Below are positions 16,705 to 35,378 of a stretch of 41,077 nt of DNA, piece by piece. Within the stretch, counting starts at the first letter, position 1. Every line of letters starts with the position of its first letter. The position numbers and the translations under genes are program-made. This DNA comes from Pseudomonadota bacterium (GTDB lineage: Bacteria; Myxococcota_A; UBA796; SXON01). The stretch lies in assembly GCA_030685065.1 (NCBI GenBank), contig JAUXQH010000005.1:1-41077 (forward strand), given 5' to 3'. The notes under the pieces are model-generated. The model saw only the letters and a program-made list of their open reading frames with translations, did no database searches and had not been told where the DNA came from.

Positions 16705-16754
16705 CTGGTTCCGGACGCGCGGGGCTCCCGGGGTGGCGCGCCCCGCCCCCGCCG

Positions 16755-16787
16755 CATACTCCGCCGTCCGCCCCCTTCTGACCGGAG
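16755..16787 (+). promoter_or_regulatory. possible -10 and RBS of the AIM24 operon
   Basis: CATACT (16755-16760; four of six matches to TATAAT) is followed by a Shine-Dalgarno GGAG (16784-16787) 8 nt before the GTG start at 16796. No convincing -35 element is seen. This is a weak call from a short gap after tamB. Confidence 0.3.
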
Positions 16788-16795
16788 CCTCGCCC

Positions 16796-17416: not shown

Positions 17417-17419
17417 CAG

Positions 17420-18058: not shown

Positions 18059-18063
18059 CGACG

Positions 18064-18795
18064 ATGCGCTTCAACCAACAGAGCCTGCCGTCCGACGACA
18101 ACCTGAACCGCTTCGCGTTCTGCACCGACGTGAAGGGGGACATGGTCATCCGCCGCGGCAAGATGATCGCCTGCTACGGGCAGCTCCGCTTCGAGGCGCT
18201 CGGCTCGAGCGTGCTCGATCTGGGCGTGCGGCGCTCGTTCAACGCCCCCGCGTACGTGAATGACTTCATGGGCGTGACCGGGCAGGGCAAGCTGATCCTC
18301 GGGGACAACGGCAACGACATCGCCGCCTACCTCGTGGAGGACGCGACGTTCACCCTCAAGGCCGACCACGTGCTCGGTTTTCAGACCTCGCTCAAGTGTC
18401 AGGAGTCCACCCTCCCCGGCTACGTCACGCTCATCGGCAGCGGCCGCCTCATCGCGTCGTCCAACGGTCCTGTGGTGTTCATGGAGCCCCCCTGCCGCGT
18501 CGATGAGGACGCGATCCTCGGCTGGGCGGACCTCCCGAGCCCGTCGTATCGCTACGACTACGCGTACGTGCAGGGCATCCTCGGCGCCGTCGGCGCGATG
18601 GCGGGGATGACACGTTCGGGCGAGGAGCGTCAGCTCGACTTCATCGGCAAGGGCACCGTGCTCGTCCAGTCCTCCGAGGAGGGCCTCGCCGGGCGCTCCG
18701 GTCTCGCGTCGGTCATCGCCCAGATCTCCGGGCTCCATCAGAACGAGCTCGCGCAGCTCTCGCAGGCGATCGCGGGGCGGATGACGCGGCGGTGA
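18064..18795 (+). CDS. AIM24 family protein, copy 3 (divergent)
   Basis: This 243-aa protein is a more distant AIM24 relative. It keeps GKMIACYGQLRFE near the start and GEERQLDFIGKGTVLVQ near the end, in register with the other two copies. It has an extra helical tail after residue about 210 that ends SQAIAGRMTRR. It contains four cysteines, unlike copy 1. The ATG at 18064 lies 5 nt after the copy 2 stop and was preferred over upstream in-frame codons inside copy 2. It is the last gene of the three-gene run; the hairpin array follows after 30 nt. Confidence 0.82.
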   Translation: MRFNQQSLPSDDNLNRFAFCTDVKGDMVIRRGKMIACYGQLRFEALGSSVLDLGVRRSFNAPAYVNDFMGVTGQGKLILGDNGNDIAAYLVEDATFTLKADHVLGFQTSLKCQESTLPGYVTLIGSGRLIASSNGPVVFMEPPCRVDEDAILGWADLPSPSYRYDYAYVQGILGAVGAMAGMTRSGEERQLDFIGKGTVLVQSSEEGLAGRSGLASVIAQISGLHQNELAQLSQAIAGRMTRR

Positions 18796-20557: not shown

Positions 20558-23185
20558 GTGTCGGCCGAACAAGCACTCCAGCCGCCTGTGATCACGCCGT
20601 CCGTGCGTCCGGGCGTCGTCGCGATCGCGCTGGCGATCCTTCTCCCGCTCGCGACGCTCGCCATCCCTCTCGCGTGGTGGGCCCGCCCGGATCCGGAGGC
20701 GTCGCTCGCGCCTGTCGCCGCCGGGATGGAGAAGAGCCTCGCGAACGACCCCGAAGTCGTGCTGCTCGGCGCGTCCAAGGTCTACACGGACCTCGACCAG
20801 GCCGCGCTCGCGGGGGCCCTCGCGTCCTCGCCCGACGAGGTCAAGCCGCTCAACCTCTCGGGTACGACGGCGCCGGTGTGGTACGCCGTGCTCAAGAACC
20901 GGGTGTACGGCACCGGCAAGAAGCCGAAGCTGATCCTCGTCTACTCCACGTTCGACTGGGCGCTCGCGGCGCGCCCCTCCGGGGAGACCGAGCGCGCGGT
21001 GCTGCTCGCCCAGATGGGCTCCGACGAGGAGGTGCTGCGGCGAAAGTCGCTGGGCGCGGGGGCCGGCGGAGCGATGTGGGATCGCGTGCGGCGCCGCCGG
21101 ACCGAGTCCCACGCCGCGATGATGGGCTTGGTGCGCGACGCCGCGGTCGGCTTCACGCTTGCCACTCCCGGAGCGGCTCCAGCAGGGGAGGGCCGCGTGG
21201 CCGCAGGCGCCGCGTTGGCCGCGCCCGCGCTGGACGCGCTGTTCGGCATGGAGGCCGGGCTCGATCTGTCGGCCGCCAACCGCGCGATCCCGATCGTGGA
21301 GGAGGCCCGCAAGCAGGCGGCCGCGTCCACGCGCCTCGAGGACACCCTGCTCCCCGACTTTCTCGAGATGGCGGCGGCGCACGACGCGAAGATCGTGTTC
21401 ATCCACGCGCCGGTGCGCCTCTCCTCGGAGTTCGGCTTCCAGGTCGAACCGCAGCTCATGCGGGACGCCGTGCAGGCCATCAACGACGCGGGCGCCGGCT
21501 ACGTCGACCTTCGCGAGCTCCGCCTCGGGGATGCCGCCTTCGGCGACGCCGCGCACCTCAACCGCGTCGGCCGGGACACGCTCACGCGCGCGCTGATCGA
21601 GCGGCTCCTGGCCATGGGGGTCGGCGGGGACGGGCCGATCGCCGCGGCCAGGCTCCCCGTGGTCACGACGCCCCCGCGGGTTGCCCGCGTCGGCACGCCG
21701 CCGGTGTTCCCCGCCGTCGTACCGAAGCGGGGCCCGCGTGCGTGCGGCTGGGAGGCGCCCATCCCCGAGCTCCGCCCGATCAACGACTTCGCGCTCCAGG
21801 CGGCCGGGCTCGGGATGGTCTCGCCGCTCGTGCTGCTCGAAGACGGCGTCCCGATGAAGGCGCACGCCACTCGCGACGAGTTCGACGACGCGTGCACCGG
21901 CGCGTTCCTCCACCAGGAGCGCGGCGCGAAGTTCTCGCCCACCGGCTCCGATCCGGCGGCCGCCTCCGCGCGCACGTACACCTTCGCGCTCTCCCCCGAC
22001 GCGCCGATGCGCACGGAGCAGGGCTTCGAGGCGTGGTGGGTGTACCCGGGGACCAGCCTCACGTTCGATTTCGACGCGGCGGAGGAGCCGGCCGCGGACC
22101 GCCGCATCGTCGTCGATGCCGTCGTGTTCGGCGCCGGCACGGGCGCCGCCACCGCGCGCGTCGGGGACGGCCCGGAGGTCCCGCTCGCCGGGGTTGGTCT
22201 CCACCGCACCGCCACCCTCGTCTCCCCGACCCCCGCCGGCTCCCCGCCGTCGGGGCCCTGGCGCCTCACGATCTCGGCCCCGGCGGACGGCGGGTGGGTG
22301 CTCCTCCGCCGCGTCGTCTACGGCACGGCCGAGGATCCACGCTTCGTCGTGGGCGCCCCGGGCGGCAGCAGCGTCGGCATCGTGACGGCGGACGTGGCCT
22401 ACGCGGCCCCCCCCCAACCCCTGGGCCCCCTCGGCGTCGCCACCCCCGGCGCGGGCGGCACCGCGACCTACGATCTGGGCGCGATGGGCGTGCCCGACAC
22501 CCGCGCGCTCTGGCAGCTCGCGAGCGTCTCGGGCTGCTCGCCGGTGCGCGTCCTCGAAGACGGCACGCCGCTTCCTTCCCCCGTCGTGCGCGCGGAGGAG
22601 GTGACGAAGGGCCCCGGCCGCTTCGCGCAGGTCGGCACGCTGCTGACCGTGACCGGGAGCGACGCGACGGCCCCCGGCGCGAACGGGCGCGCCTACACCG
22701 CGCGGCTCGACGAGTCGCGGCGCTGCCGCGGGCTCCGCTGGCTCTACCCGGGGGACACCGCCACGTTCACCGTCAAGCCCGCCTCCCTCTCCCCGCTCCT
22801 CGCGGACGCGACCCGCGTCGAGATCGGCGGAGCGGCGATCGTCGCTTCGAACGCGCCCCCTGCCGCCACCGTCGGCGCCTCCATGGGGAGCGTGGGCGCC
22901 ACCGGCGGGACCGAGCCGGGGAGCGGCCCCCAGGGCACCCTGCGCATCCACGTCGGCGACACCGTGTACCTCGACGCCCGCTTTCCCCTCGCGGACCTCG
23001 CGACCACGCCCCCGGCGTGGACCATCGATCCGCCGCTCCCGCGCGGAACCGAGCCGATCGTCCTCGAGCTCGCGATCCCGCCGGACGCGCCCTACACGCT
23101 GTTCACCAGCCTCGCGCTGTCGGAGCCGGGCGTGATCCCGTTCTCGTCGTCCGTTCCCGCACCGACACCGGAGCCGGCGCCATGA
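20558..23185 (+). CDS. SGNH-type acyltransferase partner with duplicated C-terminus
   Basis: 875 aa. One N-terminal membrane helix (about residues 17-39) is followed by an SGNH-like periplasmic domain to residue about 355. The nucleophile block is VVLLGASK (Ser73) and the catalytic pair is D330-xx-H333 in FGDAAHLNRVG. The remaining 500 residues are beta-rich and contain two related segments. Residues 421-506 have LLEDGVP, PTGSD, ARTYTF and WWVYPGTSLTF. Residues 661-740 have VLEDGTP, VTGSD, GRAYTA and RWLYPGDTATF. The stop overlaps the MBOAT start (ATGA), matching known SGNH-MBOAT pairs such as AlgX/AlgJ-AlgI that O-acetylate exported polysaccharide. The substrate here is unknown. GTG 20558 was chosen from its -10-like context; GTG 20549 is the alternative. 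Confidence 0.8.
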   Translation: MSAEQALQPPVITPSVRPGVVAIALAILLPLATLAIPLAWWARPDPEASLAPVAAGMEKSLANDPEVVLLGASKVYTDLDQAALAGALASSPDEVKPLNLSGTTAPVWYAVLKNRVYGTGKKPKLILVYSTFDWALAARPSGETERAVLLAQMGSDEEVLRRKSLGAGAGGAMWDRVRRRRTESHAAMMGLVRDAAVGFTLATPGAAPAGEGRVAAGAALAAPALDALFGMEAGLDLSAANRAIPIVEEARKQAAASTRLEDTLLPDFLEMAAAHDAKIVFIHAPVRLSSEFGFQVEPQLMRDAVQAINDAGAGYVDLRELRLGDAAFGDAAHLNRVGRDTLTRALIERLLAMGVGGDGPIAAARLPVVTTPPRVARVGTPPVFPAVVPKRGPRACGWEAPIPELRPINDFALQAAGLGMVSPLVLLEDGVPMKAHATRDEFDDACTGAFLHQERGAKFSPTGSDPAAASARTYTFALSPDAPMRTEQGFEAWWVYPGTSLTFDFDAAEEPAADRRIVVDAVVFGAGTGAATARVGDGPEVPLAGVGLHRTATLVSPTPAGSPPSGPWRLTISAPADGGWVLLRRVVYGTAEDPRFVVGAPGGSSVGIVTADVAYAAPPQPLGPLGVATPGAGGTATYDLGAMGVPDTRALWQLASVSGCSPVRVLEDGTPLPSPVVRAEEVTKGPGRFAQVGTLLTVTGSDATAPGANGRAYTARLDESRRCRGLRWLYPGDTATFTVKPASLSPLLADATRVEIGGAAIVASNAPPAATVGASMGSVGATGGTEPGSGPQGTLRIHVGDTVYLDARFPLADLATTPPAWTIDPPLPRGTEPIVLELAIPPDAPYTLFTSLALSEPGVIPFSSSVPAPTPEPAP

Positions 23186-24591
23186 ACTTCGTCCAGACCG
23201 AGTTCCTCTGGTTCTTCGGCATCGTGTTCACGGTGTACTGGGCGCTCCCCCGGCGCACCTGGCAGAACGTGCTGCTCACCGTCGCGAGCGCCGTCTTCTA
23301 CGGGTGGGTCCACCCCTGGTTCCTCGTCCTCCTCTACGTCTCCGCCGTCATCGACTACCTCGGCGGGCTGGGGATGGTCCGCTTCCCGGACCACAAGAAG
23401 CTCGTGCTCGGGATCACGCTCGGGAGCAACCTCACGCTCCTCGGGTACTACAAGTACTTCGACTTCTTCGTCGAGAACGCCGCCGTCGCCCTCTCCGCGC
23501 TCGGCGTCGATAATTCGCTCACTCCGCTCGGGATCTTCCTCCCCGCGGGCATCAGCTTCTACACGTTCCAGTCGATGGCCTACTCGATCGACGTGTACCG
23601 CGGCGAGCTCAAACCGCGGAAGAACCTCCTCGACTACCTCCTCGCCGTGAGCCTCTTCTGCCACCTCGTGGCGGGGCCGGTGCAGCGGGCGAGCAACCTG
23701 CTCCAGCAGGCGGAGACCCCCCGCGTCTTTTCCTGGGACATGATCCGGTCGGGGTTCGCCCTCGCGATGTGGGGCGCGGCCACCAAGATCGTCGTGGCGG
23801 ACACGCTCTCGCCCTACGTCGACAAGATCTACGCCCTGCCCAGCCCCTCGACTCCGCTCCTGGCCGCGGGGACGCTCGCGTTCGCGGTGCAGATCCTCGC
23901 GGACTTCGCGGGCTACTCGAACATCGCCCGCGGCACCGCGCGCATGCTCGGGTTCGAGCTCATGGTCAACTTCGACGCCCCGTACCTCGCGAAGAACCCG
24001 AGCGAGTTCTGGCGGCGCTGGCACATCAGCTTCAGCACCTGGATCCGCGACTACGTGTACATCCCGCTCGGCGGCTCCCGGGGAACGTTCGCCCGCGTGC
24101 AGGCCAACACCGTCGCGGCGATGGTGGTGTCGGGCATCTGGCACGGGGCGAGCTGGAACTTCGCGCTCTGGGGGCTCTACCACGGCCTCCTCCTGGTCGG
24201 ATACCGGCTGGTCACGCCGCGGATTCCGGGGAGTTGGAAGCAGGTTCCGGGGGCCGGCGCCATCGCCGTGGCGATCATGTTCGGGTTCACGCTGTTCGGG
24301 TGGTTCCTCTTCCGGGCGCTCGAGCTCCATCGGATCGCGACCGTGCTCGCCCAGGACCCGTTCGCGTTCCCTGCGGATCAGCAGATCGCGACGGTGGTCG
24401 TGGTCGCGGTGACGCTGGCGTGCGCGACCCCGCTGGTCCTCGCGAACGTCCTTCAGCGCCGCGTGGTGCCCGCGCTCGCGCGCTCCCAGTGGTGGCTGCC
24501 GGTGCAGACCACCGCGTGGGCGGCCTTCGCGCTCGCCATGTTCACGTTCGTGCGGATGTCGGCGGCCGACTTCATCTACTTCGCGTTCTAG
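23182..24591 (+). CDS. MBOAT O-acyltransferase (AlgI-like)
   Basis: This 469-aa polytopic membrane protein belongs to the MBOAT family. Landmarks are LPAGISFYTFQSM (residues 120-132), FWRRWHISFSTWIRDYVYIPLGG (277-298, described here by its ends F277 and G298) and the catalytic His321 in WHGASWNF. AlgI/DltB/PatA-type enzymes pass an acyl group from a cytoplasmic donor across the inner membrane to a periplasmic SGNH partner, which is encoded just upstream with a 4-nt overlap. No alginate or peptidoglycan-specific gene lies nearby, so the acceptor glycan is not known. Confidence 0.95.
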   Translation: MNFVQTEFLWFFGIVFTVYWALPRRTWQNVLLTVASAVFYGWVHPWFLVLLYVSAVIDYLGGLGMVRFPDHKKLVLGITLGSNLTLLGYYKYFDFFVENAAVALSALGVDNSLTPLGIFLPAGISFYTFQSMAYSIDVYRGELKPRKNLLDYLLAVSLFCHLVAGPVQRASNLLQQAETPRVFSWDMIRSGFALAMWGAATKIVVADTLSPYVDKIYALPSPSTPLLAAGTLAFAVQILADFAGYSNIARGTARMLGFELMVNFDAPYLAKNPSEFWRRWHISFSTWIRDYVYIPLGGSRGTFARVQANTVAAMVVSGIWHGASWNFALWGLYHGLLLVGYRLVTPRIPGSWKQVPGAGAIAVAIMFGFTLFGWFLFRALELHRIATVLAQDPFAFPADQQIATVVVVAVTLACATPLVLANVLQRRVVPALARSQWWLPVQTTAWAAFALAMFTFVRMSAADFIYFAF

Positions 24592-24670
24592 CTCCGTCGG
24601 GAGCGAGCGCGGGGGGAGGGGAGCGCGGTGCCTGCGCGGGGCCCGAGGCGCGCCGGTGGGAGGGTCCGGC

Positions 24671-24699
24671 TTGCGGCGGGGGGCGGTGTCACCTAAAGT
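24671..24699 (+). promoter_or_regulatory. promoter TTGCGG-N17-TAAAGT
   Basis: A -35-like TTGCGG (24671-24676) and -10-like TAAAGT (24694-24699) are separated by exactly 17 nt. The -10 ends 7 nt before the GTG start at 24707, and no Shine-Dalgarno lies between, so a leaderless transcript is expected. This is the best-supported promoter in the window. Confidence 0.55.
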
Positions 24700-24706
24700 C
24701 ACGCCC

Positions 24707-26074
24707 GTGAAACACCGCAGCCTCATCGCTCTCCTCGGCTCCGTCTCGCTCCTGGTCGCCTCCGGATGCGGCAGCGAGCCGCCGGTGGCCGCCGCGCCGG
24801 TCGTGCCGCCCGGCCCCACCCCCGCTCCGCGGGGCACGCCGAACGTCCTCGTGATCGTGATCGACACCCTGCGCGCGGACGCGCTCGGCACCTACGGTCA
24901 GAAGCGGCCCACGTCGCCCAACATCGACAAGCTGGCCGAGCAGAGCGTCGTGTGGGAGACAGCGTGGACCCAGTACACGTGGACCCTCCCCTCGTTCGTC
25001 TCGTACATGACGTCGTCCTGGGCGCGTACGCACGGCTGGGACTATGCGATGGGCAAGCTCGACACCTACAAGATGCTCGACGCCAAGATTCCGACCATCG
25101 CCGAGGTGTTCTCCTCCGCCGGCTACAAGACCGACGGCCACTACGCCAACATGCACCTGAAGGCCGAGCTCGGCTTCGGCCGCGGGTTCGACACGTGGAA
25201 GCTCGCCCCCGAGCCCGCCACCGTGCGTGACTCCATCGCGAGCATCGGCACCTGGAAGGATGACGGAAAGCCGAACTTCCTCTACGTCCACCTCATGGCC
25301 CCGCACGTCGCGCTCCTCCCCACGCCCGAAGCGCAGGCCGCCGTGGGCGTGAGCGTGACCTACGAGCCCAAGAAGGGCCTCAACTACGACCACATCGTGA
25401 GCGCGCCCCCCGAGCTGAAGGAGGCACGCAAGCAGGAGATGCTCGACGCCTACCACGCGTGCGTGTGGAGCGGCGATCAGGAGGTGGGGCAGATCCTCGC
25501 CGCGGTGGACGCCGCGGGCGCGGACGACACCATCGTCGCGTTCTGGTCGGACCACGGCGAGATGCTCGGCGAGCACAACCACGTCGGGCACAACCAGTAC
25601 GTGTGGCAAGAGGTCGTGACCGTCCCGCTCCTCATCAAGGCGCCGGGGCTCGAGCCGCGTCGCGAAACAAAGCGTGTTGGTCGCCTCATCGACGCCGCGC
25701 CGACCCTCCTCGAGCTCGCGGGGCTCCACGTGCCCGACATGTGGCAGGGCCAGTCGCTGTTCACGGGCGAGCAGCCCATCGTCGGCACCGAGCGCGACGG
25801 CCTCGCGGCGTTCACCCGCGGCGGCTTCAAGACCGTCGAGGACCGCGCGAAGGAGAAGTTCATGTACGCCCACGACCTGGCCGCCGATCCGACCGAGCTG
25901 ACCCAGATCAAGGACCCCATCCTCCCCAAGATCGCGGCGCTGGTCCGGGACGCGGCGGCGTGGCGGCAGCAGGTGCCGAAGGGCGTCAACACGGGCGAGG
26001 GGCTGGACCTGACCGCTGACGAGCACGCCGAGACGGTCAAGCAGCTCGAGGCGTTGGGGTACACGGGGAAGTAG
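24707..26074 (+). CDS. lipoprotein of the sulfatase/phosphatase fold with Thr active site
   Basis: 455 aa. A lipoprotein signal ends at Cys21 (VASGC), followed by a Pro/Ala-rich linker and an alkaline-phosphatase-superfamily domain. Metal-site blocks are VIDTLRAD (Asp53) and SDHGE with a following GEH (D282, H283, H290). The position of the sulfatase formylglycine Cys (CxPxR) is occupied by Thr93 in TLPSF, and the Arg is Phe. It therefore cannot mature as an ordinary type I sulfatase. Thr is the nucleophile in phosphoethanolamine and phosphoglycerol transferases of the same fold, so a transferase or phosphodiesterase is possible. It follows the MBOAT gene by 115 nt with its own promoter. Confidence 0.85.
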   Translation: MKHRSLIALLGSVSLLVASGCGSEPPVAAAPVVPPGPTPAPRGTPNVLVIVIDTLRADALGTYGQKRPTSPNIDKLAEQSVVWETAWTQYTWTLPSFVSYMTSSWARTHGWDYAMGKLDTYKMLDAKIPTIAEVFSSAGYKTDGHYANMHLKAELGFGRGFDTWKLAPEPATVRDSIASIGTWKDDGKPNFLYVHLMAPHVALLPTPEAQAAVGVSVTYEPKKGLNYDHIVSAPPELKEARKQEMLDAYHACVWSGDQEVGQILAAVDAAGADDTIVAFWSDHGEMLGEHNHVGHNQYVWQEVVTVPLLIKAPGLEPRRETKRVGRLIDAAPTLLELAGLHVPDMWQGQSLFTGEQPIVGTERDGLAAFTRGGFKTVEDRAKEKFMYAHDLAADPTELTQIKDPILPKIAALVRDAAAWRQQVPKGVNTGEGLDLTADEHAETVKQLEALGYTGK

Positions 26075-26117: not shown

Positions 26118-26306
26118 ATGCGCACCACCATCGACATCGACGACGAGGCGCTCGCCCGCGCGCAGGAGTACGCGCCTCACCTCAACAAGACGGCGCTGGT
26201 CGCCGAGGCCTTGCGTGCGTTCGCGCGGCAGGAGGCCCGGCGCCGCATCGTCGAGGGCGGGCTCCACCAGCCGGACTTCGCGGAGCCGCCCCGGCGGAAG
26301 CCGTGA
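26118..26306 (+). CDS. vapB: VapB-family antitoxin
   Basis: This 62-aa protein has the short ribbon-helix-helix start (MRTTIDIDDEALARA) typical of VapB antitoxins (PF09957-like). A helix NKTALVAEALRAFARQEARRR follows (one residue longer than can be quoted safely in full elsewhere), then a Pro-rich C-terminal arm of the kind that fits into the toxin active site. The ATG at 26118 is fixed by GGAGG 7 nt upstream. Its stop overlaps the toxin GTG (GTGA), which couples the two products and is usual for type II modules. Confidence 0.88.
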   Translation: MRTTIDIDDEALARAQEYAPHLNKTALVAEALRAFARQEARRRIVEGGLHQPDFAEPPRRKP

Positions 26307-26665
26307 TCCTGGTCGACACGTGCGCCTGGAGAAAGTGGGCGATCCACCTGCGTGTGCCTGATCCGGCGTTCGCCCGGTTGGTGGTCGACGGGGATGTCGT
26401 GACGCATCCGTGGGTCGTGGCCGAGCTGTTGCTCGGGGGGCTCTCCCCACCGCGCCTCCAGATGATCCTCGAGCAGCCCACGCTCTCGATCACGCCCTAC
26501 GACGAGGTCATGCGCTTCATCCGCCGGCACCGCCCCAAGGGCATCGGCTGGGTCGACGTGAACCTGCTCGTCTCGGCGCTGGATGCTGGAGCGAGCATCC
26601 TCACGACGGACGACGGTCTACGGGAGAACGCGGAGCAGCACGGCGCCGCCTGCCGAATGAGCTGA
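26303..26665 (+). CDS. vapC: VapC-family PIN-domain toxin
   Basis: This 120-aa PIN-domain ribonuclease has all four expected acidic residues: Asp5 (ILVDTCAW), Glu41 (VVAELLL), Asp85 (GWVDVNLL) and Asp103 or Asp104 (LTTDDGL). The domain looks intact, so the module is probably active. VapC toxins cleave tRNA or rRNA in a Mg-dependent way when the antitoxin is degraded. The GTG start overlaps the vapB stop. The gene ends 1 nt before the convergent stop codon of the GT-C gene. Confidence 0.9.
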   Translation: MILVDTCAWRKWAIHLRVPDPAFARLVVDGDVVTHPWVVAELLLGGLSPPRLQMILEQPTLSITPYDEVMRFIRRHRPKGIGWVDVNLLVSALDAGASILTTDDGLRENAEQHGAACRMS

Positions 26666-26666
26666 T

Positions 26667-29384
26667 CTACCCCCCCGTGATCCCCACCCCGTCCACCGTC
26701 ACCGTCCCCACCACCCCGTCGAGCACCACGCACGGCCGCACCAGCGCCGTGTTGTCGGGAAACGGAAGCGCGCGCGTCTCGTCGAGCTTCGCGTCCGGCC
26801 CCCCGAGAGGCCCGACGTGCTCGATGCGGCCTCGGCCCTCGGGGTCCTGTAGGAGCACGGCGTCCGCGTCGAGCGCGCGCAGGTGCACCCAGGCCTTGCC
26901 CTCGGTGACCGCGCCGTGGGCGTGCACCGTGGCGGACATGGGGGCCTTCCACGGCACGGTCGGGCCGCACGCCTGGAGCTGCGGGCGCGCGGCGTTCACC
27001 TGCACCTCGAGCGTGCTCCCGACGGTGCGCAGCACGGCGTCCGCGTCCGGGGGGTAGAGGCGCCAGCCGGTGGGGACCGGGGTGTTCGCGGGCGCCCCGC
27101 CGGTCGACGCCGCGGCGATCGCGATCACGGCCCCTTCGCCGTAGAGCGCGATGTCCTCCATCCGCACGGTGCCGGTCAGGCCGTCGAGCATGACGCACAC
27201 GCGCAGCTTGGGGCTGTCCACGTCGAGCACGACGGCCTTCTGGATGACGTTCGCGCCGGCGACGAGCGGCCCGGCGTGCGTGATGTCGTAGCCCCCGGCC
27301 GGCAGCGCGCGGAGCTGATCGTCCGCGCCCATCCCGCGGAAGTGCAGGAACGCCTTGCCGGAGAGCCCCTCGGTGGTGGCGTTCACGACGGCCGTGAAGC
27401 GGCTCGCCGGCGTCACCTGGACCGCGTTGCACACCTGGAGCGACTTCTGCGCCACCTTCACCCGGATCTCCAGCGCGCTCCCCTCGCGCACGAGCTCGAC
27501 GTCGCCGAGCGCGCTCGCCGGGTACGCCATCCACTTGCGCGCCTTGGCGTGGAACGTCTCGCGCGCGATCGGGGCGACGCCCCCGGGAAGCCACACGCCC
27601 ACGTCGTCCTCGGGGGTGGGGCCCGTGTCGCGCGAGGCGAGCGTGGCGGCAGAGGGGGTGTCGTTCGTGCGGTACACGCGCAGGGTGAGGCCAGCGTCCA
27701 CGAACTCGATCCGATCGATCTCGGGCACCAGCGTCTGCTCGGCGAACGCGCGGGCGTAGTGGTTGCCGAAGGCCTTCCACTGGTCGAAGTACCGGGTGCC
27801 GGGCACCGTCTCGATGGTGATGTACGTCGTGCGGTCGCGCTGGCCGGGCGCGAGCACCGTCTCCGCCGTCCACGCCGTGTACTCCTCGCTCCAGGGGGCC
27901 TCGACCCCCGTGCGCGACTGGGTGCCGAACAGCTGCTGATCGAGCCGGAGCTTGGCGGTCACGCCGTTCACGCGCAGCCAGTAGTCGATGAGGTTCGGCG
28001 AGATGCGGAACACCCAGCCGGTCACCCAGGCCTGCTCGCGTTGACGCGCGTGCTTCTCCATGAACTGCAGCGCCGCGAACGCGGTGGGATCGGGCTGGAA
28101 GTCCGTGCGGGCCGCGAGGCCCCCGCCGTCCCGGCTGGCGAGGGTGACCTCGTGCTGCCACGCGCCGTAGCCGCACCCGAGCGCCAGCATCGACGCGAAG
28201 CCGACGAATTGGGGTGTCACGACGCCGCGCGGCCGGAACCGGATCATCGCGAGCGGCGCGACGGCGCACAGGTAGAAGACCGGCAGGACCGTCGCGAGGT
28301 TGCGGGCGATCTTGAAGTCGTGCCACGTGAGCGCGGCGAACCCGATGAGCACGTATGCCTGGAGCCGTCCGAGGCCCGCGCCCGAAGGGGAGTCTGGCGC
28401 CGCGGTGGCGTCGGCGCCTCGGGACCTCCACACCCACGGCACCAGCCCCACGAAGAACGGCACGAACAGCGCCGCCCCGAGCCAGGGCAGGTAGCCGCGG
28501 TGCGTCGAGAGCGGCACGAACAGGAGGCTCTCGGCGCTCCAGAAGTCGAGGCCGGAGGAGCGGTTCTCGAAGAACTTCTGAACGAAGTCGTACAGGTCCG
28601 GCCGGCTCAATTGCCAGAGGCCGAAGCCCACGAGCGTCGGCACCGCCCACAGCAGCACGCGCGGGTCCATGAGCGCTTCCCGGTCACGACGGAAGCGCCA
28701 GGCGTGGTGCACGTACAGCGGCGCGAGCAGCATCGGCGCCATGTTGAAGCGCACCAGCGTCGCGGCGAGCACCGCGAGGCCGATGCCGAGCTGCACGCGC
28801 GCGTCCCGACGATCCGCCCAGTGCACCGCGAGCCCGAGGGCGAGGAGCTGGGTGAGCAGGCCGGTGGACTCGGTCATCGGGCTCGAGAGCAGCTCGAGGT
28901 TGCCGCTGGAGAGCGCCGTCAGGAGCGCCGCGACCAGGCCGACTTCGAGGCCTCGACGCCTGTTGGGGGGCCCCGGGAGCGCGCGGTGGGCGGTCCACAC
29001 GAGCAGCCCGAGGGACGCGATGAAGCAGAGCACCGGGTAGAGCCGCGCCGACGCCATGGTGTTGCCGGCGAGGGTCAGCCACAGGGCGAGCAGGCCGGAG
29101 TGCAGGGGCGGGTGGAGGTCGGGCTTGGTCAGGCCCTTGAGCACCTCCCACACGTTCCCGGAGACCAGGTTCGCGTGGATCTTCACCGCCTCGAGCAGGT
29201 AGCCGGCGGGGTCCCACGTGGGCAGGCCGTCGGGGGCGTACGCGAGCGCATGCGCGTGCCACACGGAGGCGGCGATGCACGACGCGGCCCCGATCGCGAA
29301 GGCGCCGCGGATCAGGGAGCCACGGAGGGAGCCCCGCCCGAAGTCCCGCTTGGAGTCCCGCTCGGGCAGGTCGCTGTCAAACAT
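26667..29384 (-). CDS. GT-C-type membrane protein with two Cys-paired modules
   Basis: 905 aa. The N-terminal 440 residues are polytopic with an early periplasmic-loop acidic motif (TWDPAGYLLEA) and resemble GT-C (GT39/83-like) glycosyltransferases that use polyprenyl-phosphate sugars. Two copies of a beta-rich module follow: about residues 617-750 (Cys652, Cys730) and 769-905 (Cys806, Cys885). Each closes with the pattern R-x-C-V-x-L-D-G-x-x-G-T-V. The ATG at 29384 was chosen over 29396 because TATGCT lies exactly 7 nt upstream. The gene stands alone on this strand, divergent from two related genes. The sugar and acceptor are unknown. Confidence 0.8.
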   Translation of the reverse strand: MFDSDLPERDSKRDFGRGSLRGSLIRGAFAIGAASCIAASVWHAHALAYAPDGLPTWDPAGYLLEAVKIHANLVSGNVWEVLKGLTKPDLHPPLHSGLLALWLTLAGNTMASARLYPVLCFIASLGLLVWTAHRALPGPPNRRRGLEVGLVAALLTALSSGNLELLSSPMTESTGLLTQLLALGLAVHWADRRDARVQLGIGLAVLAATLVRFNMAPMLLAPLYVHHAWRFRRDREALMDPRVLLWAVPTLVGFGLWQLSRPDLYDFVQKFFENRSSGLDFWSAESLLFVPLSTHRGYLPWLGAALFVPFFVGLVPWVWRSRGADATAAPDSPSGAGLGRLQAYVLIGFAALTWHDFKIARNLATVLPVFYLCAVAPLAMIRFRPRGVVTPQFVGFASMLALGCGYGAWQHEVTLASRDGGGLAARTDFQPDPTAFAALQFMEKHARQREQAWVTGWVFRISPNLIDYWLRVNGVTAKLRLDQQLFGTQSRTGVEAPWSEEYTAWTAETVLAPGQRDRTTYITIETVPGTRYFDQWKAFGNHYARAFAEQTLVPEIDRIEFVDAGLTLRVYRTNDTPSAATLASRDTGPTPEDDVGVWLPGGVAPIARETFHAKARKWMAYPASALGDVELVREGSALEIRVKVAQKSLQVCNAVQVTPASRFTAVVNATTEGLSGKAFLHFRGMGADDQLRALPAGGYDITHAGPLVAGANVIQKAVVLDVDSPKLRVCVMLDGLTGTVRMEDIALYGEGAVIAIAAASTGGAPANTPVPTGWRLYPPDADAVLRTVGSTLEVQVNAARPQLQACGPTVPWKAPMSATVHAHGAVTEGKAWVHLRALDADAVLLQDPEGRGRIEHVGPLGGPDAKLDETRALPFPDNTALVRPCVVLDGVVGTVTVDGVGITGG

Positions 29385-29391
29385 GGCGGCG

Positions 29392-29397
29392 AGCATA
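29392..29397 (-). promoter_or_regulatory. -10-like TATGCT before a leaderless start
   Basis: On the minus strand TATGCT ends 7 nt before the ATG at 29384. No Shine-Dalgarno and no clear -35 are visible. The alternative ATG at 29396 would lie inside this hexamer. Confidence 0.35.
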
Positions 29398-29525
29398 TCC
29401 GATCGACATCGTGCGCTCGTCGGGCGCCTCGGAGACCAGCGGGTGCGGGGGCCCGCGCCGCGCGAGGCGCGCGTCGCCGCGTGTCTTCCGGGCCCGCTTC
29501 GCTCGGTCGGCGCCGAGCCGCCGAC

Positions 29526-29577
29526 GCGCCGCCGGGCGGCGCCCCTCCAGCCCCGCTGGGCCGGAGGACCGGCCTCC
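29526..29577. repeat. two strong hairpins in the divergent gap
   Basis: GCGCCGC/GCGGCGC (29526-29532 with 29536-29542, 3-nt loop) and GGAGG/CCTCC (29563-29567 with 29573-29577, 5-nt loop) lie in the 281-nt gap between the divergent GT-C genes. The gap (29385-29665) shows no gene; the hairpins may insulate the two promoters. It resembles the hairpin-rich gap at 18826. Confidence 0.35.
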
Positions 29578-29650
29578 TCCAACTCGTCACGTGACGGTCA
29601 GGTCCAGGGTTCGTGGTCGAGCGCACACCCACACGACCCGCTCCAATCGA

Positions 29651-29656
29651 GATAGT
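29651..29656 (+). promoter_or_regulatory. -10-like GATAGT
   Basis: GATAGT (four of six -10 matches) ends 9 nt before the GTG at 29666. There is no Shine-Dalgarno and no recognisable -35. It is the proposed promoter for the three-gene plus-strand run 29666-35378. Confidence 0.35.
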
Positions 29657-29665
29657 CCGCTCCCC

Positions 29666-31996
29666 GTGCGTCTCCGCCACGCCCCCGTCCTGCTCGCCGC
29701 CCTCCTCGCGCTCGTCGGGATCGGCCACTGGCCCCTCTGGCAGGACGAGGCGTTCACCTGGGCGTTGATCCAGCAGAGCGCCGGCGCCATCGTCGACGGC
29801 GCGGCCGGCGATCGCCACCCGCCCCTCTACTACCTGCTCGTGGCGCCGCTCCGGGTGTTCGGGGACCGCGACGAGCTCGTCCGGCTCCCCTCCGCGCTCG
29901 CGTTCATCGCGGCGGTGTGGATCGCGGGGAGCGCCGCGCGGCGGCACTTCGGGGAAAACGTCGCCATCATCGTCGGCTTCACGATCGCGCTGTCGCCGGT
30001 CGCGCTGCTCCACGCGAACAACGCCCGTATGTACGCCCTGCTGCTCCTCTGGGGCGCGGGCCTCCTCTGGGGCGGCCTGGAGCTGGTGTGCGGGGACAAG
30101 CCGCGTCGTGGCGCGCTCGCGCTCGGCCTCGCGGCGGCGGGCGCGGTGTGGACCCACTACGCGGGCCTCGCGGGGATCGCGTCCGCGGGCGCGGGGGCCG
30201 CGCTCGGCTGCCTCGCCCGGGTCGACCTCCCCTGGAAGGCCCGGTTCGGCCGCGTCGGCTGGCTCGCCCTCGCCCTCGGCGTCGCGGGCGTGAGTTTCCT
30301 GCCCTGGGCCACCGGCCCCCTCCAGTTCCAGCTCGTCAACAAGGACGCGCCCGCCGAGCGCACGCTGACCGTCCTCGCCTACGCGCTCTGGAACTTCGAC
30401 AACCGCGTGCCCGCCCTCTCCATCGCGCTCGTGATCGCGCAGATCGCGGGCGTGATCGCGCTCCTCCGCCGTCGTGACCCGCCCGCCGTGGTGCTCGGGA
30501 TGTGGGCGCTCGGCGGCGTGGTGCTCCCCTGGGTGCTCTCGCGCTCCTTGCCAGCGCAGAACCCACGAAACTACCTCGACTTCCTGCCCGCCGCGGCCGT
30601 GCTCGTCGGCCTCGCGGTCCAGCGCTGGCCGCGCGCGGCGGTCGGCACCCTCGCGCTCCTCGCGGCGGAGCCCCTCTGGGATCTGCTCACGCGCACCGTG
30701 AGCCCGCAGGAGACAGGCGTGGGCTTCGACTACCACGTCGAGGCCGACGTGTTCGACGCCTCCGTCCCCGCTAACGCCGGCTTCTACTTCCGCCCCAGCT
30801 ACATGCTCACGCAGTATCGTCGCTACGCGCCCGCGCTCGAGACACGCACGGGCCTCCCGGTGACCGCGAACGCGTGGATCGCCTCGCCGCGCACCGAGTG
30901 GCTCGACTCGTCGATCACCGCCCGGTACACCGAGGCGTGCACGTTCCGGCAGGCGTTCCGCGTGGTCGTGTACGCGCCGGACGGCAGCGGGTGTGACGCG
31001 ATGGCCGCCTGGGTCCGCGCCGGTGCCGAGGCCGGCTACGCGCCGTTCCGCATCGAGATGGGCACTCGGGCCCTCGCCGCCAACAAGGTCGCGGAGGCCG
31101 AGGAGTGGGTGCGGCCCGCCGCCGAGGCCGTGCGCGCGCACCCCGCCGCGTGGATCACCCTCACCGACATCCGGCTCCGCGCCCAGGACGGCGCCGGGAT
31201 GCTCGCGGCCGCCGATGAGGCGCTCGCGACGGCGAAGAGCTGGCACTTCCCGGGCCGCGTGATCGGGGGGGTCCACAACACGCGCGCCCGGGCCCTCGCG
31301 ATGCTCGCGCGGGACGAGGACGCCGCCGCCGCGCGCAGCGCCGGCACCTGCGCCCAGACCAGCCCGCTCCCGGCGCTGTGCGGCACCTGGGCCGCCCCGT
31401 GGGTGCCGACCCTCCCTCCGCTCGACACGCCGCCCGCCACGCTCCCGCCGCTCCCCGCGCTGACCGAGCCGCAGGATGCGGCGCCTCCGGTCGATCCTCC
31501 CCGCGGCGCCGCCCGCCTGTCGATGTGGGCGCTCGAAGGCGAGGCCCTGCCCGCCGGCTGGGCCGACGGCACCGGAACTGCCGACGATCCGTCCGCCACC
31601 ATGGAGCCCGCCGAGGACCAGAAGAGCGGCATCAGCCTCGTTCTCCGCGTGCGCCCCGATCGCCCCGCCGCGGTGGTGTGCGCCACGCTCGTGGACGCCG
31701 CGCCCCGCATGGCCCTCCGCGCCCGTTGGCGCCTGCATGCCGACGGCCCCGCCGGGTGGACGCGCCTGGTGTTCGAGGCCCGCCTCGCCGACGCCGAGGG
31801 CAACGTGAAGAAGCTCGCGGACCAGCCCATGATGGAGCGCCCGCTCCAGACCGCCACGCCCACCACCTGGCGCGTCGACCGGTTCGACTTCCGCACGACC
31901 GACGCCGCGAAGGTCCGCCTCTGTGCCAAGCTGGAGGGCAAGGTGCCCGCCACGGCCTCCATCGACTGGATCGAGATCGGGAGCGTGGACGAATGA
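29666..31996 (+). CDS. GT-C-type membrane protein with Cys-paired module
   Basis: 776 aa. The N-terminal 350 residues are polytopic and carry the GT39-like loop acid motif LWQDEAFTW soon after the first helix, then a periplasmic DRHPPLYYLL block of the ArnT/PMT type. A helical TPR-like stretch follows at about residues 455-560. A Pro-rich linker leads to one Cys-paired module (about 617-776, Cys672 and Cys753) ending ASIDWIEIG. The GTG at 29666 gives a normal first helix. Its stop overlaps the next ATG by 4 nt. It probably transfers a sugar from a polyprenyl carrier on the periplasmic face; the acceptor is not known. Confidence 0.8.
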   Translation: MRLRHAPVLLAALLALVGIGHWPLWQDEAFTWALIQQSAGAIVDGAAGDRHPPLYYLLVAPLRVFGDRDELVRLPSALAFIAAVWIAGSAARRHFGENVAIIVGFTIALSPVALLHANNARMYALLLLWGAGLLWGGLELVCGDKPRRGALALGLAAAGAVWTHYAGLAGIASAGAGAALGCLARVDLPWKARFGRVGWLALALGVAGVSFLPWATGPLQFQLVNKDAPAERTLTVLAYALWNFDNRVPALSIALVIAQIAGVIALLRRRDPPAVVLGMWALGGVVLPWVLSRSLPAQNPRNYLDFLPAAAVLVGLAVQRWPRAAVGTLALLAAEPLWDLLTRTVSPQETGVGFDYHVEADVFDASVPANAGFYFRPSYMLTQYRRYAPALETRTGLPVTANAWIASPRTEWLDSSITARYTEACTFRQAFRVVVYAPDGSGCDAMAAWVRAGAEAGYAPFRIEMGTRALAANKVAEAEEWVRPAAEAVRAHPAAWITLTDIRLRAQDGAGMLAAADEALATAKSWHFPGRVIGGVHNTRARALAMLARDEDAAAARSAGTCAQTSPLPALCGTWAAPWVPTLPPLDTPPATLPPLPALTEPQDAAPPVDPPRGAARLSMWALEGEALPAGWADGTGTADDPSATMEPAEDQKSGISLVLRVRPDRPAAVVCATLVDAAPRMALRARWRLHADGPAGWTRLVFEARLADAEGNVKKLADQPMMERPLQTATPTTWRVDRFDFRTTDAAKVRLCAKLEGKVPATASIDWIEIGSVDE

Positions 31997-34284
31997 GCGC
32001 GCATCTTGCGACGGAGCGAGCGGAGCGGCCGGTGTTCGTGGCGGTCGGGGCCCTCTGCCTCCTCGCCACCTACAACGCCCTCTATTTCTTCCCCATCACC
32101 GTCGACGACGCGTTCATCAGCCTGCGCTACGCGTGGAACCTCGCGCACGGCGAGGGCCTCGTGTTCAACCCCGGCGAGCGCGTCGAGGGCTACTCCAACC
32201 CGAGCTGGACCCTCCTCGCGGCGCTGTTCCTCACGCTCGGGATCGAGCCGCTCGTCGCGCTCAAGTGGCTGGGCGTCGCGTGTGTCGGTGTCCTCCCGGC
32301 CGTCGCGTGGGCGTCGTCCCGCCAGCTCGGCCTCACGGCGCGTTGGGCGCTGATCCCCGCCGGGCTCTGCGCGGTGGATCTGAACATCGCGTTCTGGGCC
32401 CCGAACGGCCTGGAGGCGCCCCTGTGGACCGTGCTCCTCGCCGCCTTCCCCGGCCTGCTCGCCCGCCGCTGGACCACCGGCGAGCGGTTCCCCGTCAGCG
32501 CGCTCGTCGGCGCGGCGCTGTACGTCACGCGTCCGGAGGCACCGCTGTTCGTGGCGCCGGCCCTCCTGTTCGAGGCCATCCGCGCCGCGCGCGATCCATC
32601 GCGACGCAAGGCCGCGCTCGTGTGGGCCGCGACCCTGGCCGTACCGTGTCTCTCGTGGCTCGGCTTCCGCATGCTCTACTACGGAGACTGGGTCGCCAAC
32701 ACCTACTACGTGAAGGCGTCCGACGGCTTCCACCCCGACATCTTCAAGAAGTACCTCGCGAGCTGGCTCGTCGTGAACGCGCCGATCACCGGCGCGCTGC
32801 TCGCGCTCACCGCGCCGCTCGCCCTGCGCACCGTCGGCGGCCGGCTCTCGGTCGCGGCGCTGGTGATCCAGCTCCTCTTCGTGCTCCGTGCGGGTGGCGA
32901 CTGGATGGCGCAGAACCGCTTCTGGGGCCCGGCCGTGCCGCTCGCCGGGTACGTCATCGCGACCGGTGCCGCGTCGCTCGCGCAGCTCCTCGTCGGCAGA
33001 GGCCAGGCGCTCGCACCCCGCGTGATCGCCGCCGCGATCGTGCTCCCGCTGCTCCCCCAGGCGTGGCGGCACCTCACGCTCGAGTTCCTCTACCTCGACA
33101 ACGGCAAGCCCAGTGTCGTCGCCCGCTGGGAGGGGAACACGAAGCGCACGATCGATCGCGTGCGGGCCCCCTTCCGCACGGGCGTGCCCGACCGCGTGGC
33201 CCGCGTGCTCGAGTACGTTCCCGACGGCGCGACGGTCGCGCACTCCGAGATCGGCCTGCTCGCGTACGTGTCCGACAACCCGCTGCTGGACGCCTTCGGG
33301 CTGGTCGATCGTCGCCTCTCCGGCGCGTCCGGCGAGGCGCTCACCGACGTGATCGAGAGCCTCGACCCGCCCGACTACCTCCTCATGCGGGACCAGGTCC
33401 CCATGCTCAAGAAGATGACGAAGACCGCCTGGTATGCCGAGCAGGGCTACACCGAGCGGCAGCGTTGGCAGAACGTGTGGTTGGAGTCTCCGGCGGCGAC
33501 CGGTGCGGCCGAGCGCCTTCCCCCCGAGCAGGTGTTCGTGCGCTACGACCGTGCCGTCGAACGTGTCCCGCGCGACGTGACCTTCCACCTCGCCCGCATC
33601 GATCTCGCGCGCACCGTCGGAGACAAGGAGCGGGAGGCGCGGTACTGCGCCGCGGCGGAGGCCGCGATCCCCTCGCTCGCGAATGTCTGCAAGGGCCCGG
33701 GTGCCCAGGCGGGCGGGGCGGCGCCCCGGGCCGACTCGATCGTGTTCAGCCCCTTCCTGTCGCAGACCCCGAACGTCGGGTTCGAGGCCGCCACCGACGG
33801 CAAGCCCGACGGATGGACGCCGCTCCCCGGCCACGCGACCGGGTTCGGCGTCGTCACCGAGGGCGCGGCCGCGGGCACCTCCGCGCTCCGCATCACGGGG
33901 AACCAGTGGGTGTGCAGCGACTGGGCGCCCGTGAAGGGTGACTTCCGCGTCTCCGGCAAGGTGCGCGCGGACAACGTGACCGGCGCGCAGAACGAGCGGC
34001 AGGGCGCCGCGGTGAGCCTCCGCATCCGGAGCGCCGGCCAGAAGAACGAGGACCTCCCCGTGCTCAAAGCGTGGACCGACACCACCGAGTGGCAGGACTT
34101 CGCGCTCACCTGGGCCGCGAAGCCGGCGTACACCGAGTTCCGCGCGTGCGTGGGCCTCAACAACGCGTCCGGGGCCGCGTGGTTCGACGATGTCGCGGCG
34201 GGCACGGAAGACGCTCCCGAAGGGACCGCCGGGGCCGCGGCCGCGGCAACCCCGGCGCCTCCCGTCGAAGTGGCCGCCCCGTGA
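31993..34284 (+). CDS. GT-C-type (AftB-like) membrane protein with Cys-paired module
   Basis: 763 aa. The first loop has VDDAFISLRYAWNLAHGEG, then FNPGERVEGYSNPSWTLL. This is a widespread GT-C signature also found in AftB-like arabinosyltransferases, with the Asp pair as the likely catalytic/metal motif. About ten hydrophobic helices reach residue about 370. A globular periplasmic part and a helical segment follow, then a Cys-paired module (597-740, Cys641 and Cys719) and an Ala/Pro-rich tail. The ATG overlaps the previous stop, and the stop overlaps the following GTG (GTGA). The three genes thus form one translationally coupled operon. Confidence 0.82.
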   Translation: MSAHLATERAERPVFVAVGALCLLATYNALYFFPITVDDAFISLRYAWNLAHGEGLVFNPGERVEGYSNPSWTLLAALFLTLGIEPLVALKWLGVACVGVLPAVAWASSRQLGLTARWALIPAGLCAVDLNIAFWAPNGLEAPLWTVLLAAFPGLLARRWTTGERFPVSALVGAALYVTRPEAPLFVAPALLFEAIRAARDPSRRKAALVWAATLAVPCLSWLGFRMLYYGDWVANTYYVKASDGFHPDIFKKYLASWLVVNAPITGALLALTAPLALRTVGGRLSVAALVIQLLFVLRAGGDWMAQNRFWGPAVPLAGYVIATGAASLAQLLVGRGQALAPRVIAAAIVLPLLPQAWRHLTLEFLYLDNGKPSVVARWEGNTKRTIDRVRAPFRTGVPDRVARVLEYVPDGATVAHSEIGLLAYVSDNPLLDAFGLVDRRLSGASGEALTDVIESLDPPDYLLMRDQVPMLKKMTKTAWYAEQGYTERQRWQNVWLESPAATGAAERLPPEQVFVRYDRAVERVPRDVTFHLARIDLARTVGDKEREARYCAAAEAAIPSLANVCKGPGAQAGGAAPRADSIVFSPFLSQTPNVGFEAATDGKPDGWTPLPGHATGFGVVTEGAAAGTSALRITGNQWVCSDWAPVKGDFRVSGKVRADNVTGAQNERQGAAVSLRIRSAGQKNEDLPVLKAWTDTTEWQDFALTWAAKPAYTEFRACVGLNNASGAAWFDDVAAGTEDAPEGTAGAAAAATPAPPVEVAAP

Positions 34285-35378
34285 TCCTCGCCCTCCTCGC
34301 CCTGTCCGCGTGCACCCCCGAGGCCGACGTCAGCGCGCTCCCGCCCATCGCGAGCGTACCGGTGGTGCCCGACGCCGACGTCGCCGCGTTCACGGGCGAG
34401 TCCAAGGCGCTCGAGATGGACTTCGCGGGCGGCACGAACGGCGCCCCGTACGCGATGGCGTTCTTCATCCCTCCGGGCACGCAGGCAGTCGCGACGGCGG
34501 GCGTGCTCTCGGACGGATCCGAAGGCTTCACCTTCACCGCCACCGCCCCGGGGGACGGCGTGGTGTGCAGCCAGCCGATCGGCGTCGCCGGGCCGATCAC
34601 CGTCGCCGCGCGCCAGCGGGTCACGACGCTCGGGCCCGTGGCGCAGGCGTGGCACGGCGCCCAGGTCGAGCTCCGCGCGCGCACGGAAGCCGGCGTCCTC
34701 GTCGAGGTGCCCGGCACCCGCTACCTCCCGCTCCGCCAGGTCAACGCCGCGGGCGACTGGGAGTCCTGGGAGCAGAGCGTCGATCCACCCGCAGGCTCCC
34801 GCAAGGTCGAGCTCTGCTGGCGCCTCGTCGGCACCACCGGATCGGTCGAGGTCGATCGTGCGACCGTCGTGAGCGACGGTGTGCCGCTCCCCCTCGCCAT
34901 GCCGGTGGTGTCGGTGCGGTGGGAGCTCGACACCCCCGGCCCGAGCGGCGCCCCGGAGGGTTTTGACTTCATGCTCCCGCCGGGCACGCGCGGCGCCACG
35001 CTCGTCACCGAAGAAGGCGCGATCCGCTTCGAGACCACCAGCGCGAGCAACGCCCTCGCGTGCAGCCAACCCTTCTCGGTCGCCCCCGGCATGCTGTTCC
35101 GCGGGCGCTACCGCCTCCGTGACCTGCAGACCGACACGCGCACGTGGACAGGTTTTGTCGCCGAGGTGCGCACCTACGACATGATCGGCGGGCTCGCGTC
35201 CCCCGCGGGCCTGCCGTTCAGCGTGCTGGAGACTTGGAAGGCGCCGACCGCCGACTGGGCCGAGTTTGAGAGCGCCTTCGCCCCGCCGACCGGAGCGGTC
35301 ACCGGGAAGCTCTGCTTCCGCTTCGTGGAGTCGACCGGCGCGGCAGACCTGGACTGGGTGGCCGTGGGCCCGGGGTAG
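34281..35378 (+). CDS. lipoprotein made of two Cys-paired modules
   Basis: This 365-aa protein is a short lipoprotein (LSAC lipobox, Cys11) consisting almost wholly of two copies of the beta-rich module. They span residues 41-198 (Cys96, Cys179) and 211-365 (Cys261, Cys345). The copies align through PPGT, then V/A-x-C-S-Q-P, then L-C-x-R-x-V-x-x-T-G. It is the stand-alone version of the domain fused to the three neighbouring GT-C proteins. No catalytic motif is seen, so a binding or scaffold role on the periplasmic side of a membrane is inferred. The GTG start overlaps the upstream stop. It converges with the heparinase-like gene, leaving a 5-nt gap. Confidence 0.8.
   Translation: MILALLALSACTPEADVSALPPIASVPVVPDADVAAFTGESKALEMDFAGGTNGAPYAMAFFIPPGTQAVATAGVLSDGSEGFTFTATAPGDGVVCSQPIGVAGPITVAARQRVTTLGPVAQAWHGAQVELRARTEAGVLVEVPGTRYLPLRQVNAAGDWESWEQSVDPPAGSRKVELCWRLVGTTGSVEVDRATVVSDGVPLPLAMPVVSVRWELDTPGPSGAPEGFDFMLPPGTRGATLVTEEGAIRFETTSASNALACSQPFSVAPGMLFRGRYRLRDLQTDTRTWTGFVAEVRTYDMIGGLASPAGLPFSVLETWKAPTADWAEFESAFAPPTGAVTGKLCFRFVESTGAADLDWVAVGPG

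What the first reader, a model, noticed from the sequence alone, without database searches (positions are those of the whole stretch)
26670..35378. Six copies of a Cys-paired beta module fused to three GT-C proteins and a lipoprotein
The C-termini of three adjacent GT-C-type membrane proteins and both halves of a lipoprotein share a module. It opens with a strand containing [VA]C followed about 80 residues later by a strand ending C-x-x-L/R, then G-x-x-G-[ST]-[AV]-x-[VFL]-[DE]. The Cys-Cys distances are 78, 79, 81, 78, 83 and 84. The modules occur on both strands, so the family spread by duplication and fusion. The constant spacing suggests a periplasmic disulfide-closed beta-sandwich, perhaps a carbohydrate-binding domain that holds the acceptor glycan or docks the three transferases to the lipoprotein. 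I know no described system with this architecture.
Basis: partly seen in the sequence, partly recalled or inferred. Interest (0 to 1): 0.75.

Follow-up and report, generated by a model that had tools for sequence, protein, structure and literature searches.

The report
Shared sugar-clamp domain on envelope glycosyltransferases
In an uncultured bacterium with Myxococcota relatives, three neighbouring membrane proteins that resemble sugar transferases, plus a predicted lipoprotein, carry six related copies of one two-cysteine domain that is predicted to fold like known sugar-binding modules and would likely hold the same sugar chain for several envelope enzymes.

The parts
26667..29384 (-). GTC1: GT-C-type (PMT_2) membrane protein with two C-terminal modules; start codon uncertain (29384 or 29396)
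   Evidence: Pfam PMT_2 28.7 bits, cut-off 26.1; core matches at 53-86% identity in 3 genomes and 37% in a fourth, all four with modules
27117..27617 (-). GTC1 module a (Cys codons 27429-27431 and 27195-27197)
   Evidence: profile match; Cys in 12 of 12 rows; CBM-type fold predicted
26673..27083 (-). GTC1 module b (Cys codons 26967-26969 and 26730-26732)
   Evidence: 99.4% profile match to module a; Cys in 12 of 12 rows
29666..31996 (+). GTC2: GT-C-type membrane protein (PMT_2 26.0 bits, cut-off 26.1) with one C-terminal module; start uncertain
   Evidence: homologues L049 and L043 pass the PMT_2 cut-off
31499..31990 (+). GTC2 module (Cys codons 31679-31681 and 31922-31924)
   Evidence: found by the LP profile in the whole genome, E 6.7e-4; 93% profile match to LP modules
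31993..34284 (+). GTC3: AftB-like GT-C membrane protein with one C-terminal module; overlaps GTC2 by 4 nt
   Evidence: profile hit to AftB 9dlf E 3.8e-11, DD motif aligned
33751..34224 (+). GTC3 module (Cys codons 33913-33915 and 34147-34149)
   Evidence: found by the LP profile in the whole genome, E 8.4e-5; weak direct hit to CBM4-2 xylanase module 1k42, E 0.0097
34281..35378 (+). LP: predicted lipoprotein (lipobox Cys codon 34311-34313, motif reading) made of two modules; overlaps GTC3 by 4 nt
   Evidence: 45 homologues; AlphaFold2 pLDDT 89
34392..34880 (+). LP module N (Cys codons 34566-34568 and 34815-34817)
34902..35372 (+). LP module C (Cys codons 35061-35063 and 35313-35315)
24656..26074 (+). 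Sulfatase-family predicted lipoprotein (start uncertain, 24656 or 24707); Thr in place of the formylglycine Cys; probable functional partner
   Evidence: Pfam Sulfatase 3.6e-37; alignment WTLPS against LCGPS; homologues fused to the module in L103 and L109
20588..23185 (+). SGNH-like protein (motif reading, no Pfam family above cut-off) overlapping the MBOAT gene; possible partner
   Evidence: homologues beside GTC3 homologues in L110 and L121
23182..24591 (+). MBOAT O-acyltransferase; possible partner
   Evidence: Pfam MBOAT 1.1e-19; homologue near LP in L048

Best explanation
The six segments are diverged copies of one two-cysteine module, predicted to be a CBM-type jelly roll, that likely serves as a shared clamp for the acceptor glycan of the three GT-C-type proteins. 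Shown by sequence: the six copies, their conserved Cys pairs, their homology (GTC1 copies through merged profiles), and the repeated fusion of the same module to GT-C-like proteins, to a sulfatase-family enzyme and to predicted lipoproteins in relatives. Predicted: the jelly-roll fold, for LP and the GTC1 tail. Inferred: each GT-C protein transfers a sugar from a lipid-phosphate donor on the outer face of the inner membrane; its tail module lies in the periplasm and holds the growing glycan at the active site; the two-module lipoprotein supplies the same grip in trans, presenting or retaining the same chain, and the sulfatase-like and O-acyltransferase enzymes next door modify that chain. The two Cys likely form a disulfide that pins the sandwich.
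Confidence: 0.6

Rival explanations
1. The module is a protein-docking domain: tails of the GT-C proteins and the lipoprotein bind one another (or a common scaffold) and gather the enzymes into one complex, without touching sugar.
For: Same module on several different enzymes and on a lipoprotein; protein-binding jelly rolls (MAM, ephrin receptor) match at similar scores; FecB and LpqZ co-purify with AftB and AftA (PMC12802301, passages seen).
Against: Most listed solved-structure matches are polysaccharide-binding modules (28 of 50 and 41 of 50 rows).
Confidence: 0.25
2. The module is a passive, stabilising C-terminal domain inherited by fusion, kept rigid by its disulfide, with no specific ligand.
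For: Strict Cys pair and poor conservation elsewhere; four more distant GTC1-core matches lie in frames of 530-589 aa with no module match there.
Against: Retention as a free-standing two-module lipoprotein in 24 of 25 LP loci (the other is cut by a contig end), and the cis-to-trans swap in L115, are hard to explain for a passive tail.
Confidence: 0.12
3. The GTC1 modules are not homologous to the LP, GTC2 and GTC3 modules; their two-Cys pattern and jelly-roll fold arose independently.
For: Pairwise LP-GTC1 probabilities of 4.6-55% with a reversed control at 56%; the LP profile alone does not find GTC1 at E 10.
Against: Merged profiles 96.3% against at most 4.9% for reversed controls; both Cys columns co-align in 12 of 15 pairs (local) or 11 of 15 (global) against 0 of 36 reversed; the same fold matches; module b of the GTC1 homologue L114 also scores 12.9 bits with the LP+GTC2+GTC3 profile.
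Confidence: 0.06

Closest known systems
EmbC / AftD (mycobacterial GT-C arabinosyltransferases with C-terminal CBM-like domains)
   Same: GT-C-type membrane core followed by extracytoplasmic jelly-roll CBM-like domain(s) at the C-terminus; EmbC has a disulfide in its C-terminal domain (PMC3044687, passages); AftD has three CBMs (PMC12802301, discussion passage)
   Different: No Emb model was hit at the thresholds used; here one module family is shared by three GT-C-type proteins plus a lipoprotein; the EmbC disulfide Cys749-Cys993 brackets the domain (subdomain II is 761-966) rather than lying inside the jelly roll
LpqZ-AftA and FecB-AftB (lipoprotein helpers of CBM-less GT-C enzymes)
   Same: A lipoprotein working with a GT-C transferase, suggested by its authors to play a CBM-like role (PMC12802301, passages)
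   Different: LpqZ and FecB resemble substrate-binding proteins; here the lipoprotein is built from the same module that the GT-C proteins carry
AftB (GT-C, terminal arabinofuranosyltransferase)
   Same: GTC3 family profile matches AftB over the N-terminal part (E 3.8e-11), including the DD motif (catalytic D62 in a DD motif, PMC12041299, passage)
   Different: NCBIfam AftB equivalog 27.6 bits against a cut-off of 1050; GTC3 has the added module
CBM families 4, 16, 22, 29 and the hyaluronan-binding module 4d0q
   Same: Predicted fold
   Different: 4-18% identity in those rows; no curated Pfam model recognises the module; conserved Cys pair

Membership tests
GT-C enzyme with C-terminal CBM (EmbC/AftD kind) | GT-C-type multi-TM core | tested here: met
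   PMT_2 in GTC1 (28.7 bits, cut-off 26.1), GTC2 26.0 just below it with homologues above it; GTC3 to AftB E 3.8e-11; hydrophobic segments lie N-terminal of the modules except one called inside GTC1 module b, which I take as false
GT-C enzyme with C-terminal CBM (EmbC/AftD kind) | C-terminal jelly-roll CBM-like domain | tested here: met
   predicted model of the GTC1 tail; GTC2 and GTC3 modules by homology only
GT-C enzyme with C-terminal CBM (EmbC/AftD kind) | domain binds the acceptor glycan and is needed for transfer | not testable with these tools
   needs binding and activity assays
CAZy CBM family (4, 16, 22, 29) | fold | tested here: met
CAZy CBM family (4, 16, 22, 29) | recognised by a curated Pfam sequence model | tested here: not met
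   no Pfam family for the modules at E 0.1; weak profile hit to CBM4-2 1k42 E 0.0097
CAZy CBM family (4, 16, 22, 29) | carbohydrate binding | not testable with these tools
   needs a binding assay
AftB (GTC3) | NCBIfam equivalog score | tested here: not met
   27.6 against 1050 bits
AftB (GTC3) | GT-C core with DD motif | tested here: met
   alignment of VDDAF with ADDGL
S1 sulfatase (24656-26074) | Cys or Ser converted to formylglycine | tested here: not met
   Thr aligned to that Cys; other alkaline-phosphatase superfamily chemistry possible
Disulfide-closed beta-sandwich | the two Cys within bonding distance | not testable with these tools
   models returned without coordinates; 81 of 81 modules with exactly two Cys is indirect support

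The most novel reading that the evidence does not exclude
A lineage-restricted new CBM family forms an interchangeable glycan clamp: the same two-cysteine module is plugged into AftB-like and PMT-like transferases, a threonine-type sulfatase-family enzyme and a lipoprotein, in cis or in trans, so that a whole periplasmic glycan assembly and decoration line in one order of uncultured Myxococcota-like bacteria handles one shared, still unknown envelope glycan.
Probability: 0.45. Interest if true: 0.75.

Novelty: new variant of a known kind. Interest (0 to 1): 0.6.

Why it matters
GT-C enzymes build cell walls, lipid A caps and glycoproteins, yet how they grip long acceptors is known to me mainly from mycobacterial arabinan enzymes. 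Here, outside that group, the same clamp-like module recurs on several GT-C lineages and also as a separate lipoprotein, and in one genome it stands free beside a homologue of an enzyme that carries it fused. That gives a natural test of whether CBM-like tails work in cis, in trans, or both, and marks a family of uncharacterised proteins (no Pfam model) as candidate glycan binders in an order of uncultured bacteria.

Tried and rejected
Pairwise profiles did not by themselves join GTC1 to the rest; Cys masking cut both-column agreement from 12 of 15 to 6 of 15 pairs, with 0 of 36 reversed in both cases. Considered and dropped: convergence of GTC1; simple membership in a Pfam CBM family; formylglycine sulfatase. 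A strand-order reading of where the two Cys lie was attempted from the DSSP strings and the EmbC description but left out as undecided: the residues on either side of the second Cys are the hydrophobic ones, so that Cys may not face the core. A PDB search with the module profile gave only 8ag9 at E 0.0066 and four weaker chance-level rows. The solved-structure search for the SGNH-like protein gave one row at E 0.25, nothing significant. Rows dropped before counts: 9 of 45 LP homologues were left out of the 37-row alignment A1 (window plus 36), by choice; 1 of 26 LP places (G041, on a 3.3 kb contig) was not fetched; of 34 further module places, 20 were fetched, chosen by me with a lean to long frames, so several short frames of 328-340 aa like L119 are under-represented; of the 20, L113 and L122 gave no module by my own gene calling although genome search had matched them (E 7.8e-10 and 1.2e-6) and are not in the 81. 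L118 was not scanned against Pfam. Support values of the module tree were not inspected. Searches of whole genomes scored only part of the first-look candidates. Paper searches for the architecture; none of the listings described it, in a library of open-licence papers only.
Full report
What is there. The region 26667-35378 encodes GTC1 on the minus strand, then GTC2, GTC3 and a predicted lipoprotein LP on the plus strand, the last three overlapping by 4 nt. GTC1 has Pfam PMT_2 above cut-off, GTC2 just below it, GTC3 and LP no Pfam family at E 0.1. GTC3 is related to the mycobacterial GT-C enzyme AftB: NCBIfam E 7.3e-7, far below the equivalog cut-off, phmmer E 4.3e-4 to 9dlf with the DD motif aligned, family profile E 3.8e-11. 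The genome is an 8.09 Mb assembly in 175 contigs, 92% complete with 5.8% contamination; the window is 72% GC. Named homologues are MAGs labelled Myxococcota, Myxococcales, Pseudomonadota or proteobacterium; the genome's own name is not given, so 'Myxococcota' rests on these labels.

The six modules. They are conserved in all ortholog rows for GTC1 (12), GTC2 (6) and GTC3 (10), and invariant or nearly so in 37 LP rows. A profile of the LP family, run over the own genome at E 10, finds LP, an LP paralogue on contig C90, the GTC3 tail (8.4e-5), the GTC2 tail (6.7e-4) and one chance-level hit (0.14), not GTC1. Profile-profile comparison joins LP to GTC2 and GTC3, and GTC1a to GTC1b; GTC2 to GTC3 directly gives 0.1%, and GTC1 joins the rest only with merged profiles: 96.3%, against at most 4.9% for reversed merged profiles. 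Both Cys columns co-align in 12 of 15 pairs locally and 11 of 15 globally, and in 0 of 36 reversed comparisons; with Cys masked, 6 of 15 and 0 of 36. A module profile A4 (27 rows, which include the six) finds eight modules in the genome, six here and two in the C90 paralogue; the next hit is E 0.09. In A4 the only two invariant columns are the Cys; a Pro and an Arg reach 90%.

Spread. 31 of 63 genomes of the order have the module at E 1e-3. At E 1e-5 it is 30 of 71 in the class, with 0 of the 8 outside the order, and 27 of 282 drawn from the phylum, all 27 in the same order (only 13 candidates per genome were scored there). From fetched stretches I collected 81 modules: all have exactly two Cys, 73 to 97 apart, 79 of them 76 to 92 apart. 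Random windows of 452 non-module proteins from the same loci meet that in 1.8% of draws.

Architectures elsewhere. Of 34 further module places I fetched 20, leaning to long frames; 18 module proteins came out. Eleven are multi-TM and GT-C-like: PMT_2 at E 0.05 or better in L104, L105, L107, L108, L111, L112 and L114, of which L104, L105 and L108 pass the curated cut-off; homologues of GTC1 (L114, 44% over 942 positions), GTC2 (L107, L120) and GTC3 (L110, L121) by blastp; L106 by TM segments only. L104/L105 and L111/L112 are pairs from one genus. Two (L103, L109, one genus) carry the module in front of a sulfatase-family enzyme that is 41-44% identical to the one at 24656-26074 in the window. 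Two carry a weak AhpC/TSA hit (L116, L117) and L118 looks alike by start, size and tree position; one is unassigned (L119); one is a one-module predicted lipoprotein (L115). In L115 the adjacent upstream gene is a GTC2 homologue of 600 residues that stops where the GTC2 linker would start; the two genes overlap by 4 nt. This looks like the same module supplied in trans. The tree of 81 modules groups them mostly by host protein (support not inspected), which suggests that the fusions are old.

Neighbourhood. LP genes were examined in 25 of 26 places (24 by gene calling, L049 by tblastn). A sulfatase-like gene, about 30% identical to the window's, is directly beside LP in 11 (L049 and L052-L061, the latter ten in one genus) and the window's or its orthologue is in the same cluster in 2 (window, L039). 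Module-bearing GT-C genes lie in the same locus in 6 (window, L039, L041, L043, L045, L049). A second LP paralogue type sits by two M16 peptidases, in four of five loci with a class IV aminotransferase (Pfam run on L040 only). The window pair 20588-23185 and MBOAT 23182-24591 is conserved upstream in G034 and, in G036, two such pairs, GTC2, GTC1, two LP genes and the sulfatase-like gene lie within about 30 kb of one contig. The 20588 protein is SGNH-like only by my reading of motifs (recalled pattern); homologues lie beside GTC3 homologues in L110 and L121. The sulfatase-like enzyme has Thr where sulfatases have the formylglycine Cys.

Mechanism, with status. Shown: homology, Cys pairs, fusions, gene order. 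Predicted: jelly-roll fold. From established knowledge of GT-C enzymes: catalytic side and C-terminal domain face the periplasm and donors are polyprenyl-phosphate sugars. Inferred: the module grips acceptor glycan for the GT-C enzymes; LP does so in trans; the sulfatase-like and O-acyl enzymes act on the same chain; the Cys pair is a disulfide. Against: protein-binding jelly rolls match too, aromatics are not the best-conserved positions, and the AhpC/TSA fusions and the peptidase-linked LP paralogue are unexplained.

Known work. EmbC's C-terminal subdomain II is a CBM-like jelly roll and Trp868 there matters for acceptor binding and LAM synthesis (PMC3044687, abstract and passages). [quoted passage not shown] the authors' later attempt to co-purify tagged AftB with FecB failed, which they put down to the tags. 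AftB's D62 in a DD motif is catalytic (PMC12041299, passages). PMC11127046 (passages) describes a GT-C enzyme with a C-terminal beta-rich periplasmic domain in a three-component pentofuranose pathway. I found no paper on this module or cluster in the listings.

Verdict. Real, homologous, and a new variant of the GT-C plus CBM theme; interest 0.6.

Noticed in passing
24656-26074: Sulfatase-family predicted lipoprotein with Thr in place of the formylglycine Cys; relatives sit beside LP in 11 of 25 LP loci and homologues are fused to the module in two genomes of one genus.
   Followed up: partly
20588-24591: An 866-aa SGNH-like protein overlapping an MBOAT gene by 4 nt, an alginate-O-acetylation-like pair; relatives have it next to LP or GTC3 homologues.
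   Followed up: partly
16733-18795: Three consecutive AIM24-domain genes.
   Followed up: no
10016-16704: Omp85-family gene followed directly by a TamB gene.
   Followed up: no
L116:4142-5236, L117:7684-8745, L118:7060-8163: Module at the C-terminus of proteins with one TM segment; two have a weak AhpC/TSA hit, the third was not scanned; unexplained use of the module.
   Followed up: no
L038, L040, L042, L047, L048: A second LP paralogue type lies beside two M16 peptidase genes and a PDZ-trypsin gene, in four of the five with a class IV aminotransferase (Pfam run on L040, the others by blastp clusters).
   Followed up: partly
L040:12885-14291 and ten other loci: A sigma-54 activator-like regulator gene recurs near the LP or sulfatase-like genes (Pfam run on L040).
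   Followed up: no
26303-26665: PIN-domain gene between the sulfatase-like gene and GTC1.
   Followed up: no
29573-31996 (Cys 456, 474, 593, 603 counted from 29573) and 31993-34284 (Cys 552, 566): Further Cys outside the modules are present in 6 of 6 GTC2 rows and 9 of 10 GTC3 rows, perhaps additional disulfides.
   Followed up: no
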